Source of the DNA: Paraflavitalea soli
GTDB lineage: Bacteria; Bacteroidota; Bacteroidia; Chitinophagales; Chitinophagaceae
DNA length: 64,000 nt
Assembly (NCBI RefSeq): GCF_003555545.1
Contig: NZ_CP032157.1
Coordinates: 2,980,546 to 3,044,545, forward strand
Direction of reading: 5' to 3'
Below the pieces are notes generated by a model. The model saw only the letters and a program-made list of their open reading frames with translations. It was not told where the DNA came from and ran no database searches. Of this stretch, positions 58,098 to 63,799 are shown piece by piece. The position numbers and the translations under genes were made by a program. Position 1 is the stretch's first letter; each line of letters begins with the position of its first letter.

Positions 58098-59009
58098 TTA
58101 AGTATTTAGTTGGTCATCTGGTTTTGTTTTTCGTTTTCTGGTTTTCCATCTTTTTTTCAATTTTCCCTCTCTCAGATGTGCCTGATCAGGTGTAAGGTTA
58201 TCACAGCTCATATGTTGGCGCAGCCTGTTATAGCGGTCAATGGCCTTATGGGTAGCTGCTATTGCCTGGCTATAGCCTTCAAATGTTCCATCCAGGTCCA
58301 GTTCAGTTTTAAGTATTCCATTTACCCTTTCTGCTACCGGATTTTCATAGGGGCTGCCTGTCTGGGTCATACTGATGCGGATCTGATTAGTTTGTAAAAC
58401 ATTTACATACTGGTCACAGCAGTATTGTATTCCTCTGTCAGAGTGGTGGATAAGGCTTTGGGGTACATAGTCTTTTAAGGACCTTATAGCTTTGTTCAGG
58501 GCTATAAGGCATCCCCGGACCCGCAGGTTCTGACTTACATGATAACCGACTATCTTTCTGGAGTAGGCATCGGTTATCAATGAGAGGTACGAAAAGCCCT
58601 TTTCGGTACGCAGATAGGTAATATCACTCACCCACTGTTGCTGGGGCTTTAGTGCTTCCAGCCCTTTGATCAGGTTGGGCCATTTTCGATAAGGGTGGTC
58701 CGACCAGGTGGTACGGGCATGGTTCTTTTTACGCTTTTGCAGCATGTTATGCTTTCTGAGTAGTTTAAAGAACCGGTCCCTGCCCATTGTGATGTTATGG
58801 GACTGCAGGGCTGGTCGCAGAGAGCCCAGTAATTTTACAGCGCCTTCTTTCTTTAAGACTTTGCGTGCTTGTGTTGCCAGGTCCAATACAAGTTCTTCCC
58901 GCAACTGCCCGTTGGCCGCCTGCCATCCATGTTCATAATAAGCCTGCCTTGTTTTACCAAACAATGCGCAAAGTGTGCCTATCGCTGCCTGAGGATAGTG
59001 CTGTTTCAC
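58098..59009 (-). CDS. IS3-family transposase OrfB (DDE integrase domain)
   Basis: A 303-residue protein with an N-terminal helical part (HYPQAAIGTLCALFGKTRQAYYEHGW) and an rve domain with catalytic residues Asp129 (WVSDITYL), Asp191 (HHSDRGIQY) and Glu227 (NPVAERVNG). Translation starts at a GTG that overlaps the orfA stop in the sequence gtga, suggesting coupled reinitiation; the A-rich slippery site usual for -1 frameshifting in IS3 elements is not seen at this junction. No inactivating change is visible. Confidence 0.94.
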   Translation of the reverse strand: MKQHYPQAAIGTLCALFGKTRQAYYEHGWQAANGQLREELVLDLATQARKVLKKEGAVKLLGSLRPALQSHNITMGRDRFFKLLRKHNMLQKRKKNHARTTWSDHPYRKWPNLIKGLEALKPQQQWVSDITYLRTEKGFSYLSLITDAYSRKIVGYHVSQNLRVRGCLIALNKAIRSLKDYVPQSLIHHSDRGIQYCCDQYVNVLQTNQIRISMTQTGSPYENPVAERVNGILKTELDLDGTFEGYSQAIAATHKAIDRYNRLRQHMSCDNLTPDQAHLREGKLKKRWKTRKRKTKPDDQLNT

Positions 59010-59380
59010 TTGCCGGACTGTTTGGTACCAAACTTTTTTACAATGTCCACTCCCAGCTCCTTACCGGCATTTTCAAGTAACATTTCCCAGGCTGCTACTT
59101 TGAGATTGGCCTGTTGTAATTGCTTTCTGAGTTCTTCTACTTCACTGGTTGTGGCAGGCTGCTGCGATTGTTGTGTCGGCTGGACAGGTGGTATTTCTCC
59201 CGTGGGATAGTTTGCCTTATACCATTTTACAAAATGCCGGACTGTACTTGGACCAGGAAGACCATACTTGATAGCCAATTTCATATAGCCCAGATCACTA
59301 CTTAGATACTCACGGGCTACTGCGATCTTGAGGATGTTGTCATGGACAGGATCCCGACCGCCCTTGTTGTTTGAACTCAT
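59006..59380 (-). CDS. IS3-family OrfA (helix-turn-helix protein)
   Basis: A 124-residue protein. The N-terminal half has a helix-turn-helix pattern (HDNILKIAVAREYLSSDLGYMKLAIKYGLPGPSTVRHFVKWY) that recognises the element ends; residues about 79-105 form a coiled coil with leucine spacing (VEELRKQLQQANLKVAAWEMLLENAG). OrfA and OrfB act in transposition. Overlaps orfB by 4 bases. Confidence 0.92.
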   Translation of the reverse strand: MSSNNKGGRDPVHDNILKIAVAREYLSSDLGYMKLAIKYGLPGPSTVRHFVKWYKANYPTGEIPPVQPTQQSQQPATTSEVEELRKQLQQANLKVAAWEMLLENAGKELGVDIVKKFGTKQSGK

Positions 59381-60213: not shown

Positions 60214-61380
60214 CTATTTCAATTTAATTATTTCAGCACCTGCCAGCAGGAAGGCCCCTGCCCCATACACTTCATAACTCTCGGCATTGAAATTTCTCCT
60301 GGGATCGGCACCAATGGGTTGTACCCAGCCTACACGCCCTTCCGGCGATACCAGCGTATTTAATCCCAGCCAGGCCTTGCGTACCGCAGGTTCGTATTTT
60401 CCTTTATCCAACAGACCATGGTTAACACCCCAGGCCAGGGCATAACAATAAAATCCGGTACCACTACCTTCGCCGCCCGGATAGGAAGCCGGATCAAGCA
60501 GGGATGCCCGCCATAATCCGTCGGCCTGCTGCAGGGAAACAATTTTTTCTGCCATCTCTTTGTATAGCTGCTCATAAAATGAACGATTGGGATAATCGGC
60601 CGGCAGTTCTTCCAGGATACGTACCAGACCACCCATTACCCATCCATTGCCTCTTGACCAGAATACGATCTGCCCATTGGCTTCTCTTTTACCTTCACCA
60701 TTGGCATTGATCAGGTAGCTGGCATCGCGGGCAAACAGGTGTTGTTCTTTGTTGTACAACAGGTCGTAGGTTTGTTTGAACAGGGAATCGTTCAACGCAA
60801 AATAAGCAGGATCTTTTAAGGTAACGCCCAATTTGACAATAACGGGCGGTCCCATAAACAGGGCATCACACCACCACCACATCAGGCCTTTTTTTGATTC
60901 AGGTCCGGGTACGGTACGCAGCTTTTGCACGGTATCAATAATGGCGCGTATCATTTGCTGATCGCCTTTGATACGGTACATATCGATATAGGTTTGTGCA
61001 ATGGCGATATCATCTGCATGATCATAACGGCGCCCTGGCTGCCAGGCCGTACGTTGTCCCAGGGCCATTAATGAGTCCAGGATCTTTCGTGAACCGGTGG
61101 TCTTATAAGCAGCCATTACACCGGCATAAAAAGCCCCGTTGGTCCAATCAGTCGGCGTATGCTTTGGATTGCTTAGTTGCCAGTCGGTCACGCGCTGCAT
61201 GGTCTTTTTAATGTAGCGTGGCTTAAAGACCTCACCGCTTATTACGGCCGTGGTATCAGCCGTTCTGCCCGATGAGTTGATAGGTTTATTAGAACAGTGC
61301 AGGGAGGTTATTAAGACCGGGATGGCCAATAACCAATTCATCATCGATCTGTTCATGATCTGGAATCCATTCTTTTTCAT
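60214..61380 (-). CDS. GH88/GH105-family unsaturated glycuronyl hydrolase, lipoprotein
   Basis: A 388-residue protein with a lipobox SLHC (Cys29). The (alpha/alpha)6-barrel hallmarks of GH105/YteR are present: RVTDWQLSNPKHTPTDWTNGAFYAGV, YDHADDIAIAQTYIDMY, LMWWWCDALFMGPP with the likely catalytic Asp172, WSRGNGWVMGGLVRILEELP, and GSGTGFYCYALAWG. These enzymes remove unsaturated glucuronyl or galacturonyl residues left by polysaccharide lyases. Starts at 61356 or 61344 are possible. No lyase gene is near; the SusCD pair is 27 kb away. Confidence 0.92.
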   Translation of the reverse strand: MKKNGFQIMNRSMMNWLLAIPVLITSLHCSNKPINSSGRTADTTAVISGEVFKPRYIKKTMQRVTDWQLSNPKHTPTDWTNGAFYAGVMAAYKTTGSRKILDSLMALGQRTAWQPGRRYDHADDIAIAQTYIDMYRIKGDQQMIRAIIDTVQKLRTVPGPESKKGLMWWWCDALFMGPPVIVKLGVTLKDPAYFALNDSLFKQTYDLLYNKEQHLFARDASYLINANGEGKREANGQIVFWSRGNGWVMGGLVRILEELPADYPNRSFYEQLYKEMAEKIVSLQQADGLWRASLLDPASYPGGEGSGTGFYCYALAWGVNHGLLDKGKYEPAVRKAWLGLNTLVSPEGRVGWVQPIGADPRRNFNAESYEVYGAGAFLLAGAEIIKLK

Positions 61381-61460
61381 ACGTGTGTCGTTATTTTATT
61401 TGCAGTCAACTGTTTTGCATTGTAGCCGGCCTGGCAGTGGTTGGAGGAAAGGCTTCCCAA

Positions 61461-62150
61461 TCAAATAATTTTAAATTTTCCGGAAAGCAAGGGAGCTATT
61501 TTGAGCAACTCCTTGTCATCTTCCCATTCCTTTCCTTTGGTCTCTCCGCCACTGTCAAAGTACAATCCTTTTTTACTGGCATTTGCCCTGGGAAAACTAT
61601 CGTCTGCCACCTGTTTTTTGGTCACTATGCCATAAGCCTGATCTGACAAGGGTATAAGTTCTTCGAACAATACTTCTCCATAGTGATGTTCCTTATTTAC
61701 CGGAATGTCGAGGCTTGCCAAATGATCAGGGTTCCTGAGTGTTTCATAAAAGTTCTTTTTCCCCAATGAAATTAACCAGCACCTAAAATAATAAAACCTG
61801 TCATCGGAAGAACCACCCTCAATAATTGTTTGAGCAGCCATATTGTTCCAGGTATTGGATTCATCTATCTTCTGTTGGAATATGATCTCGAAATCCATGA
61901 TTTGCTGGGGCGTCAACCGCGTGAGTGCAGTCAGGATCGCATCCTCCTTGCGTTTATTATTAAACCCACCTTTCCGAAAAGCATCATCCATTATTTCCCA
62001 GAAGTAGGTAGTATCCATTTTTGCAGTGGCTGGTAATACCTGTAAAGCGGTGGTATCGCTTTGGGGTTTCACAGCAGTGGTTTGTGCGCAGGCAGCCAGG
62101 GATATGTAGAATATCCATATTAAGCTACCCTTTACAACAGCTTTGATCAT
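61461..62150 (-). CDS. DUF4240-domain lipoprotein
   Basis: A 229-residue protein with lipobox LAAC (Cys21). Residues about 40-190 contain MDTTYFWEIMDDAFRKG, LTRLTPQQIMDFEIIFQQKIDESNTWNNMAAQTIIEGGSSDDRFYYFRCWLISLGKKNFYETLRNPDHLA, the DUF4240 pattern, normally found in cytosolic proteins of Gram-positive bacteria; here it is exported. Role unknown. A longer start at 62165 is possible. Confidence 0.83.
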   Translation of the reverse strand: MIKAVVKGSLIWIFYISLAACAQTTAVKPQSDTTALQVLPATAKMDTTYFWEIMDDAFRKGGFNNKRKEDAILTALTRLTPQQIMDFEIIFQQKIDESNTWNNMAAQTIIEGGSSDDRFYYFRCWLISLGKKNFYETLRNPDHLASLDIPVNKEHHYGEVLFEELIPLSDQAYGIVTKKQVADDSFPRANASKKGLYFDSGGETKGKEWEDDKELLKIAPLLSGKFKII

Positions 62151-62254
62151 ATGAAAGCGGGGCATTACCTATAGATTTTGGTTGTCTATCATTTTTTGAG
62201 CGACTGTAAAGTAATCAAAAAATTACTCCCATCCATAAGCTATGCCGTGATAGC

Positions 62255-62290
62255 AAAAAGGAGGCCCATTGGTGAATATGCCTCTTTTGC
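62255..62290 (-). terminator. Probable terminator after the AhpD-like gene
   Basis: gaggc (62261-62265) pairs with gcctc (62280-62284); on the minus strand a T run follows. The loop is 14 bases, so stability is moderate. Confidence 0.5.
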
Positions 62291-62319
62291 CCTGTTCTTA
62301 CCTGTATAACGCCCGTGTC

Positions 62320-62865
62320 CTATCGCTTAATCTTGCACAACATATCTGAATGGATATTGAGACCGATATTAGTGAGGTTGTACAGGTGCTCACTGGCTAC
62401 CAGCCAAACGATCTCGCACACTTCCCGTTCGGAATAATGGCGGGCCATACGGGCAAAGGTATCGGGGTTTACCTGTTTGTCTTTTGTGAGTTCTGTTACG
62501 TAGTCGAGTGCTGCGCGTTCAGCTTCTGTAAAGAGCGGACTGGTGGCATATTCGGCCAGGGCATCAAACCGGGCCTCATTCATCGAAGCATTGATGGCAG
62601 CCCAGCGGCTGGTATCCATACAAAACAGGCAGATATTGATGCGTGCAACCTGTTGCCGGATGAGGAAGACGGTCTCAGCAGGCAGTAGCAGCTTTTTGTC
62701 GAGGCTGGACACTTTACCATAAAACATACCAAAAGCGGCGGGCAGGCGGGCGGAATGCACTTTGAGCGGAGCCAGCACTTTGCCAAACTGCTTGCGGGTG
62801 AAATAATATGCCAGCTTCATTGTCAATCCCTTAGGTTTCTCGATGGGAGTAAGAAAGGTATCCAT
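62320..62865 (-). CDS. Carboxymuconolactone decarboxylase/AhpD-like protein
   Basis: A 181-residue all-helical protein. The redox Cys pair Cys79-x-x-Cys82 (INICLFCMD) is present, but the His expected three residues after the second Cys in AhpD is a Ser here. SPLFTEAERAALDYVTELTKDKQVNPDTFARMARHYSEREVCEIVWLVASEHLYNLT is the family core. Peroxidase-type activity is possible but altered. The gene stands alone. Confidence 0.87.
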   Translation of the reverse strand: MDTFLTPIEKPKGLTMKLAYYFTRKQFGKVLAPLKVHSARLPAAFGMFYGKVSSLDKKLLLPAETVFLIRQQVARINICLFCMDTSRWAAINASMNEARFDALAEYATSPLFTEAERAALDYVTELTKDKQVNPDTFARMARHYSEREVCEIVWLVASEHLYNLTNIGLNIHSDMLCKIKR

Positions 62866-62980: not shown

Positions 62981-63011
62981 AAAATAAAAATGCGAGGCAG
63001 GGAGCCTCGCA
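62981..63011 (-). terminator. Rho-independent terminator after the zeta-toxin operon
   Basis: tgcgaggc (62991-62998) and gcctcgca (63004-63011) form a perfect 8-base stem with loop aggga; on the minus strand a T-rich run (complement of 62981-62990) follows. 31 bases past the stop of the small gene. Confidence 0.92.
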
Positions 63012-63042
63012 TCAATCAATACTCTTATCGGAGAATGTCTTA

Positions 63043-63228
63043 TTACTTTTTAGGAAGTGTTTCCAGGAGTTCTTTCGCAGGGACTTCTCTTATTTCACCG
63101 TCCTTGTCCCTGATAACCAAAGATCCATTATTAGCGGCTCTTTTTTCAATTAGCTTTCGCATGGCTTCCCTCGCTCCCTCCAGAATCTTTTCTGACAGGT
63201 CAATATCATATGCAGAATTATCAATCAC
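63043..63228 (-). CDS. Small protein overlapping the zeta-toxin-like gene
   Basis: A 61-residue acidic/basic protein. An N-terminal helix (LSEKILEGAREAMRKLIEKRAANNG) is followed by a strand pair (SLVIRDKDGEIREVPAKELLETLPKK). Family not recognised. It overlaps the end of the zeta-like kinase gene by 8 bases, so the two are translated together; by its size and position it may be the antitoxin or an immunity-like partner. Confidence 0.75.
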   Translation of the reverse strand: MIDNSAYDIDLSEKILEGAREAMRKLIEKRAANNGSLVIRDKDGEIREVPAKELLETLPKK

Positions 63229-63799
63229 TTTGCTTGCTTTGTTGTAAAATAATCTCCCAAATATCCGCCTTTTTTATGACAGCATCAACACCAATGCCTC
63301 CTTTGGCAATCATTTCAGGATAGGTCGCATTGTTAAAAACCATCCAATTATTGCAAATATCAATATATAAATTCAGCAGATTGTAAATTCCCCGATAATA
63401 CCTTCGTTTGATAACTTCAATTGGAATATTATGCCCTCCTTCACTTACTCTTTCAGCAACTCTTTTTATAGCCAGCTTAGGATCGTCTAACCAAAAATAA
63501 ACCAACCTCACCTTATAGCCAGCCTCCTGCGCCCTCTTCACCAGCGACACATAACTCCTTGTAGCAAGTGTTGTTTCAAATGCGAAGTCAGCCTTTTCCT
63601 CCATCAATTGGTGAATTCTTTGAAGCATAATCCTGCCAGCTTCCAATGCCACACTTTCAGGATTAAAGGGAGATAATCCGGCTGCAATACTATCCGCATT
63701 GACAAATTCCCGGCAATGCAGGATCTCTGGTAATATGGTATAACTCGCAGTGGTCTTACCTGCACCATTGCAGCCAGCTATGATATATAAATTAGGCAT
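63221..63799 (-). CDS. Zeta-toxin-like kinase
   Basis: A 192-residue P-loop protein. Walker A GCNGAGKTT (residues 9-17), EFVNADSIAAGLSPFNPE, ADFAFETTLATRSY, RLVYFWLDDPKLAIKRVAERVSEGGHNIPIEVIKRRYYRG, which are the conserved pattern of COG4185-type zeta-toxin relatives. True zeta toxins phosphorylate UDP-N-acetylglucosamine and block cell-wall synthesis; whether this one does is inferred only. A small gene overlaps its 3' end. Confidence 0.9.
   Translation of the reverse strand: MPNLYIIAGCNGAGKTTASYTILPEILHCREFVNADSIAAGLSPFNPESVALEAGRIMLQRIHQLMEEKADFAFETTLATRSYVSLVKRAQEAGYKVRLVYFWLDDPKLAIKRVAERVSEGGHNIPIEVIKRRYYRGIYNLLNLYIDICNNWMVFNNATYPEMIAKGGIGVDAVIKKADIWEIILQQSKQSD

What the first reader, a model, noticed from the sequence alone, without database searches (positions are those of the whole stretch)
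63043..63799. Zeta-like kinase with an overlapping downstream small protein
The small protein (61 residues) follows and overlaps the kinase gene, whereas classical epsilon antitoxins lie upstream of zeta. It looks unlike epsilon. The pair may be a new toxin-antitoxin type or a kinase with a regulatory partner. A strong terminator closes the two-gene unit.
Basis: partly seen in the sequence, partly recalled or inferred. Interest (0 to 1): 0.52.

Follow-up and report, generated by a model that had tools for sequence, protein, structure and literature searches.

The report
Zeta-type kinase with downstream partner protein
A Bacteroidota bacterium carries a two-gene unit, a kinase of the zeta toxin kind followed by an overlapping gene for a tiny unnamed partner protein; the pair is kept together, or even fused, across many bacteria, so it is most likely an unrecognised toxin-antitoxin family, although no toxicity has been tested.

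Summary
In detail: a 192-aa kinase (63221-63799, minus strand), a 61-aa GTG-start protein overlapping its end by 8 nt (63043-63228), and a terminator-like hairpin beyond (62989-63013). The kinase is zeta-like by Pfam (52.1 bits) and predicted fold; nearest solved structures are AvrRxo1, zeta and PezT, with a polynucleotide kinase equally close. The small protein matches no family above cut-off. The pairing is real: 75 of 80 kinase relatives have a homologous small gene directly downstream, 74 of the 75 overlapping; 3 more are fusions, 1 a damaged fusion, 1 ends at a contig end. In genome samples not chosen by partner, 20 of 22 (phylum) and 38 of 39 (family) close kinase matches have it. Both genes are under purifying selection. 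Downstream-partner kinases cluster in one clade that reaches Cyanobacteriota and Aquificota plasmids; the zeta-like kinases outside it mostly have an upstream small ORF. Best reading: a type II toxin-antitoxin-like module with an unnamed antitoxin family. A downstream antitoxin is not unprecedented (AvrRxo1:Arc1), so this is a new variant of a known kind. Toxicity, binding and substrate are untested. The decay pattern fits a toxin but is not significant once gene length is allowed for.

The parts
63221..63799 (-). zeta-like P-loop kinase, 192 aa (putative toxin)
   Evidence: ORF; PF06414 Zeta_toxin 52.1 bits, cut-off 22.3; AF2 model pLDDT 92.7, pTM 0.89; Foldseek and VIA-align matches to AvrRxo1, zeta, PezT and a bacterial polynucleotide kinase
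63749..63778 (-). Walker A loop, residues 8-17 AGCNGAGKTT (K15, T16)
   Evidence: N11, G12, G14, K15, T16, T17 invariant in 46 kinases; motif name recalled
63692..63694 (-). D36, proposed catalytic aspartate
   Evidence: N34-A35-D36 invariant in 46 kinases; role assigned by spacing from Walker A, recalled
63431..63439 (-). G121-G122-H123 of the RVxxGGHxIP motif
   Evidence: invariant in 46 kinases
63043..63228 (-). 61-aa partner protein (putative antitoxin), GTG start
   Evidence: homologues follow 75 of 80 kinase relatives; no Pfam family above cut-off; purifying selection
63079..63123 (-). segment of the partner matching the predicted beta-hairpin (residues 36-50)
   Evidence: by alignment with the fusion L059, whose model has helix 195-221, strands 225-229 and 235-239, helix 240-247
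63221..63228 (-). 8-nt overlap of the two reading frames
   Evidence: 74 of 75 relatives overlap too
62989..63013 (-). terminator-like hairpin closing the unit
   Evidence: 10-pair stem then T-rich tail; fold z -2.8

Best explanation
A two-gene toxin-antitoxin-like module of type II logic with reversed gene order. The first gene makes a zeta-fold kinase that, when free, phosphorylates a small essential metabolite (a sugar nucleotide or a dinucleotide such as NAD) and stops growth. The second gene starts inside the end of the first and makes a small helix-hairpin-helix protein that binds the kinase directly and keeps it inactive. The overlap would let the same ribosomes make both proteins, and would compensate for the toxin being first. 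Shown here: kinase family and predicted fold, conserved pairing, overlap, repeated fusion, purifying selection on both genes, patchy presence. Inferred: toxicity, direct inhibition, substrate, translational coupling.
For: Zeta_toxin profile and fold: Foldseek TMq 0.82 to AvrRxo1 4z8t, 0.72 to zeta 1gvn, 0.70 to PezT 2p5t; VIA Z 16.9, 16.0 and 15.2. Invariant Walker A, D36, E75-T76-T77, R113, R117, GGH. Conserved downstream partner: 75 of 80; phylum sample 20 of 22 kinase matches over 230 bits; family sample 38 of 39, the other at a contig end. Fusions: L022, L059, L073 (72, 51 and 62 bits) and L275, L276 (44 and 21 bits). The L059 fusion model has pLDDT 89.2, pTM 0.85. Patchy: the pair is in 3 of 5 genomes of the genus, after the CAP gene in G000 and G297 and elsewhere in G298 (there with a damaged kinase); the place after the CAP gene lacks it in G296, G298 and G299. 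Kinase GC 0.402 is the lowest of 49 long ORFs in the window. Relatives on plasmids, 6 of the 20 inspected with a downstream partner. 20 loci keep an intact small gene with the kinase broken (15) or absent (5).
Against: No experiment shows toxicity or binding for any member that I found. The decay direction (20 loci with only the kinase damaged or absent, against 2, or 3 with a damaged fusion) is what gene length alone could give (binomial P 0.07 for 20 of 22, 0.16 for 20 of 23). Two kinases with an unbroken frame lack a proper partner: L145 has a 47-aa stub, L274 none. A zeta-like fold is shared with non-toxic kinases: a bacterial polynucleotide kinase scores as high as zeta (Z 16.4), and PHROGs' matches are an ATPase and a polynucleotide kinase family. 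In the family sample 7 of 54 small-gene hits have no kinase beside them (three of these are themselves damaged, one is at a contig end), so the small protein can persist alone.
Confidence: 0.7

Rival explanations
1. A non-toxic kinase with an obligate small regulatory or stabilising subunit, for example a metabolite or nucleic-acid repair kinase.
For: The fold is as close to a bacterial polynucleotide kinase (Z 16.4) as to zeta, and PHROGs offers a polynucleotide kinase family (E 7e-4); nearly every close kinase keeps its partner, as expected of a subunit; fusions fit a subunit as well.
Against: Patchy within one genus, at two places, and found on plasmids; intact partner genes remain where the kinase is destroyed or absent, odd for a mere subunit, though not significant against gene length; the best Pfam match is Zeta_toxin.
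Confidence: 0.18
2. An abortive-infection defence module: the same kinase-inhibitor pair, but the kinase is freed on phage infection. This specifies the trigger of the main reading rather than contradicting it.
For: The relative on plasmid pSYSG lies beside DarT and macro-domain genes and a nucleotidyltransferase gene, on a plasmid for which PMC4963859 describes a potential defence island (passages).
Against: No PADLOC match at E up to 10 for the window proteins and only scattered weak ones for relatives (4 models, 1-3 of 46 members each); no defence gene among the window neighbours that I named.
Confidence: 0.2
3. The small ORF is a chance overlap with no product.
For: GTG start and short length.
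Against: Homologues in 75 of 80 relatives, fusions, pN/pS about 0.19 in the non-overlapping part.
Confidence: 0.01

Closest known systems
AvrRxo1:Arc1 (Xanthomonas effector/toxin and its antitoxin)
   Same: Closest solved kinase fold (Foldseek rank 1, VIA Z 16.9, tied with several others); antitoxin gene downstream of the kinase (PMC4938570, passages).
   Different: AvrRxo1 of X. oryzae is 421 aa with an N-terminal region absent here (chain residues 152-367 align to 1-192); Arc1-like proteins are mostly 81-98 aa with 3-4 predicted helices and a double-tyrosine motif, whereas the partner here is 61 aa, predicted helix-hairpin-helix, with a single Tyr.
epsilon/zeta and PezAT
   Same: Zeta_toxin Pfam family and fold.
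Rv0366c-Rv0367c, the non-canonical PezAT-like pair
   Same: Zeta-like kinase with Asp36 named as important (PMC6362051, passages), the same number as the invariant D36 here.
   Different: Antitoxin upstream, 129 aa, with a ribbon-helix-helix N-terminus.
EzeT (one-chain zeta toxin with a cis-acting antitoxin domain)
   Same: Toxin and antitoxin functions on one chain (mention and reference title seen in PMC5923241), like the fusions L022, L059 and L073.
   Different: The fused domain here is C-terminal and belongs to the downstream partner family; that EzeT's is N-terminal is recalled.

Membership tests
Zeta toxin superfamily (PF06414) | profile match above Pfam's gathering score | tested here: met
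   52.1 bits against 22.3
Zeta toxin superfamily (PF06414) | zeta kinase fold | tested here: met
   AF2 pTM 0.89; zeta Z 16.0, PezT Z 15.2, AvrRxo1 Z 16.9; a bacterial polynucleotide kinase ties at 16.4
Zeta toxin superfamily (PF06414) | Walker A Lys/Thr and an Asp about 20 residues on | tested here: met
   K15, T16, D36 invariant in 46 kinases; residue roles recalled
Zeta toxin superfamily (PF06414) | phosphorylates a sugar nucleotide or NAD and arrests growth | not testable with these tools
   needs expression and an enzyme assay
epsilon/zeta (PezAT) systems | antitoxin gene upstream of the toxin | tested here: not met
   partner is downstream here and in 75 of 80 relatives
epsilon/zeta (PezAT) systems | antitoxin related to epsilon or PezA | tested here: not met
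   no such Pfam match at E up to 10 for the window protein, nor among the 25 of 41 families shown for 55 members at E up to 1; remote fold relation not tested
AvrRxo1:Arc1 | downstream antitoxin | tested here: met
   as to gene order:
AvrRxo1:Arc1 | long N-terminal region before the kinase domain | tested here: not met
   the 192-aa protein aligns to chain residues 152-367
AvrRxo1:Arc1 | Arc1 double-tyrosine motif | tested here: not met
   the 61-aa sequence holds one Tyr; motif as quoted
type II toxin-antitoxin systems | two-gene co-transcribed unit | tested here: inconclusive
   overlap and terminator-like hairpin; no transcript data
type II toxin-antitoxin systems | patchy, mobile distribution | tested here: met
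   3 of 5 genomes of the genus, two sites; plasmid relatives
type II toxin-antitoxin systems | toxicity neutralised by direct protein binding | not testable with these tools
   fusions are indirect support only
type II toxin-antitoxin systems | operon autoregulation by the antitoxin | not tested
   no family above cut-off for the window partner

The most novel reading that the evidence does not exclude
A phylum-spanning, still unnamed toxin-antitoxin family in which the antitoxin gene changed from before to after the zeta-type toxin about once, stayed there through translational overlap, and then fused with the toxin several separate times into self-inhibited single chains. Weak profile similarity between the downstream partners and two of four upstream groups tested (scores 17.1 and 18.7, above all 100 column-shuffled controls each) leaves open that the same antitoxin was moved rather than replaced.
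Probability: 0.35. Interest if true: 0.65.

Novelty: new variant of a known kind. Interest (0 to 1): 0.5.

Why it matters
The kinase is already named 'zeta toxin family protein' in five annotated plasmid records that I opened, while its downstream partner is 'hypothetical protein'. If the pair is a toxin-antitoxin module, an inhibitor family common in Bacteroidota (small gene found in 51 of 195 genomes sampled from the window's family) has been overlooked. Natural fusions would give ready single-chain material for structures, and the clade boundary between upstream and downstream partners would make the evolution of toxin-antitoxin gene order directly testable.

Tried and rejected
Family libraries: NCBIfam and PADLOC gave nothing for either window protein at E up to 10. 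PHROGs gave the kinase weak matches, best an ATPase (E 2.6e-5) and a polynucleotide kinase (E 7e-4) family, and the small protein none. DUF2188 (E 0.006, below its cut-off; 3 of 55 relatives) and PhdYeFM (1 of 55 relatives, E 0.004) were considered as relatives of the small protein and not accepted.

Solved structures by sequence: no acceptable relative of the kinase or of the partner.

A mixed alignment of fusions, kinases and small proteins put the small proteins in the wrong columns and was dropped; the fusion was modelled with 3 fusions and 36 unfused kinases. Model coordinates are not delivered, so the docking surface could not be inspected; pTM 0.85 is only indirect.

The decay-direction argument was tested against gene length and is not significant. 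My first count was 16 loci; on rechecking, four more kinases that had counted as full matches (L091, L099, L253, L285) carry an in-frame stop within their first about 32 residues, giving 20. Left out of that count: loci with both genes gone or damaged (L259, L263, L264, L273), L265, L241 and L208 at contig ends, and L152, L153 and L140 with weak or partial small matches.

Tree: 101 rows, of which seven (L109, L110, L161, L179, L182, L186, L189) were labelled 'downstream' by hand. L071 and L018 were mislabelled by the script as upstream and none, though both have the downstream partner. 'Upstream' needed only a 40-160 aa ORF next to the kinase, not homology. Ten loci were dropped as duplicates or partial, L058 as a contig end, kinase ORFs under 150 aa never entered, and two thirds of the closest downstream rows were thinned out.

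Paper searches (open-access library only, listings seen) found no description of this downstream partner; subscription papers were not searched. PMC4963859 lists neighbouring pSYSG genes as TA-related but short of its criteria (passages); that sll8004/ssl8003 are this pair is inferred from gene order and numbering.

Full report
What is there. On the minus strand, 63799-63221 encodes a 192-aa P-loop kinase and 63228-63043 a 61-aa protein that starts with GTG inside the last codons of the kinase (8 shared nt). A 10-pair GC-rich hairpin with a T-rich tail follows at 63013-62989 (fold z -2.8). The gene before the kinase encodes a CAP-domain protein that begins beyond the window edge. The genome is one 8.44-Mb contig.

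The kinase. It matches PF06414 Zeta_toxin with 52.1 bits (cut-off 22.3) and AAA_33 with 35.7 (cut-off 27). In 46 kinases (the window's and 45 relatives) 36 columns are invariant, among them most of the Walker A residues, N34-A35-D36, E75-T76-T77, R113, R117 and G121-G122-H123. The AF2 model is confident (pLDDT 92.7, pTM 0.89). Foldseek's first twelve PDB matches are AvrRxo1, PezT and zeta chains. VIA-align gives AvrRxo1 Z 16.9, a bacterial polynucleotide kinase 16.4, zeta 16.0 and PezT 15.2, so fold alone does not separate a toxin from a repair kinase.

The partner. It has no family above cut-off. In the natural fusion L059 the corresponding part is predicted as a 27-residue helix, a two-strand hairpin and a short helix, in a model with pTM 0.85 for the whole chain.

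Pairing. Of 80 kinase relatives kept from a search that found 124, 75 have a homologous small ORF downstream: 72 at phmmer E below 0.01, and L032, L074 and L081 at 0.015, 0.018 and 0.38. 74 of the 75 start before the end of the kinase gene. L022, L059 and L073 are in-frame fusions; L037 is a fusion whose small part is damaged and whose kinase differs at near-universal positions (G41, G137, W152); L058 stops 15 nt before its contig end. In 296 genomes of the phylum, 22 kinase matches exceed 230 bits; 20 have the partner next to them, L145 has only a 47-aa stub, and L146 has a weak C-terminal match of 11.9 bits. In 195 genomes of the family, 39 exceed 230 bits; 38 have a partner match, two of them fused and one cut by a contig end, and the last kinase is itself at a contig end. 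Four of these kinases (two in each sample: L091, L099, L253, L285) carry an in-frame stop near their start. The samples overlap with each other and with the 80 relatives, so they are not independent.

Read the other way, of 54 small-gene hits in the family sample 36 sit by a kinase without a detected break, 10 by a broken one, 7 by none (three of the 7 small genes are damaged, one is at a contig end) and 1 more lies at a contig end. Of 28 hits in the phylum sample, 18 sit by a kinase without a detected break, 5 by a broken one, 3 by none, and 2 are partial matches. For three family kinases and one second copy that I did not fetch (G467, G379, G389, G352), 'no break' rests on the stop count.

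Selection and decay. Over 32 close pairs the small gene outside the overlap has pN 0.124 and pS 0.653, the kinase 0.093 and 0.631. Twenty loci keep an intact small gene with a broken (15) or missing (5) kinase; two keep a kinase with an unbroken frame but no proper small gene (L145, L274), or three if L037 is counted. This is the direction expected of a toxin, but the kinase is three times longer and the excess is not significant (P 0.07 or 0.16). Some breaks may be assembly errors.

Mobility. Within five genomes of the genus the close kinase and the small gene are in three. In two, G000 and G297, they follow the CAP gene; in G298 they lie on another contig, with an internal deletion in the kinase, while its CAP gene is followed by a 454-aa gene; in G296 and G299 too the place after the CAP gene lacks the pair. 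The kinase is the most AT-rich of 49 long ORFs of the window.

Clade and gene order. Among 20 plasmid loci that I picked from 584 records with a match, six have the small gene downstream (Synechocystis pSYSG, Parabacteroides, Phocaeicola, Nostoc, Geminocystis, Persephonella), thirteen have a small ORF upstream, two of these seen only by my ORF scan (L193, L195) and one (L192) with a second small gene directly downstream, and one (L187) has neither within 50 nt. In a tree of 101 kinases the downstream and fusion rows fall in one clade (67 rows, support 91/88; 98/92 with two further rows), with the other upstream rows outside; the labels are far more clustered than in shuffles (0 of 500 as low). 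The script labels needed hand correction, as told under Tried and rejected. The five fusion rows, L037 and the weak L105 included, need about four changes on that tree, at least two forced by strongly supported branches. Downstream partners from the distant branches are related to the window's partner family (five groups, hhalign scores 21-43 against shuffled maxima of 14-18, 0 of 100 each); two upstream groups score just above their shuffles (17.1 and 18.7), two do not (10.7 and 7.7).

Known relatives. Zeta-like kinases with antitoxins unrelated to epsilon are already known: AvrRxo1 with downstream Arc1 (PMC4938570, passages) and ng_zeta1 with an epsilon-unrelated fold (PMC5923241, passages including the abstract); Rv0366c has upstream Rv0367c (PMC6362051, passages). 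AvrRxo1 phosphorylates NAD, and zeta phosphorylates UDP-N-acetylglucosamine (PMC5491322, passages), so the substrate here cannot be read from the fold.

Verdict. The pair is a real, conserved and patchily distributed two-gene module, most likely a toxin-antitoxin system with an unnamed antitoxin family: a new variant of a known kind. Toxicity and direct inhibition remain to be shown.

Noticed in passing
L182 1682-4417 (Synechocystis pSYSG): The pSYSG relative of the pair is flanked by a nucleotidyltransferase gene and by DarT plus macro-domain genes, a dense toxin-antitoxin-like cluster.
   Followed up: partly
L151 2761-3602 and L160 2604-3385: A second zeta-like kinase type, present in genus mate G296, has a small ORF upstream whose helix-hairpin pattern resembles the downstream partner.
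   Followed up: partly
G150:C2:1344925-1345224, G033:C1:4060387-4060686, G390:C16:631673-632035 and similar: Many genomes hold 220-290-aa frames that match only residues about 63-180 of the kinase profile; they could have rearranged sequence blocks, as reported for ng_zeta1.
   Followed up: no
L142 4189-4353, L144 3995-4171, L260 2958-3113: Stand-alone copies of the small gene with no kinase match nearby; possible solitary antitoxins.
   Followed up: partly
L091, L099, L253, L285: Four otherwise well-conserved kinases carry a single in-frame stop in their first about 32 residues beside an intact small gene: nonsense mutants, or a restart within the gene.
   Followed up: no
window 58098-59380 (-): Two-ORF transposase-like element: rve integrase core preceded by a 124-aa ORF, about 4 kb from the pair.
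   Followed up: no
window 60214-62865 (-): Neighbouring genes: glycosyl hydrolase family 88, DUF4240 protein and carboxymuconolactone decarboxylase-like protein; no evident link to the pair.
   Followed up: no
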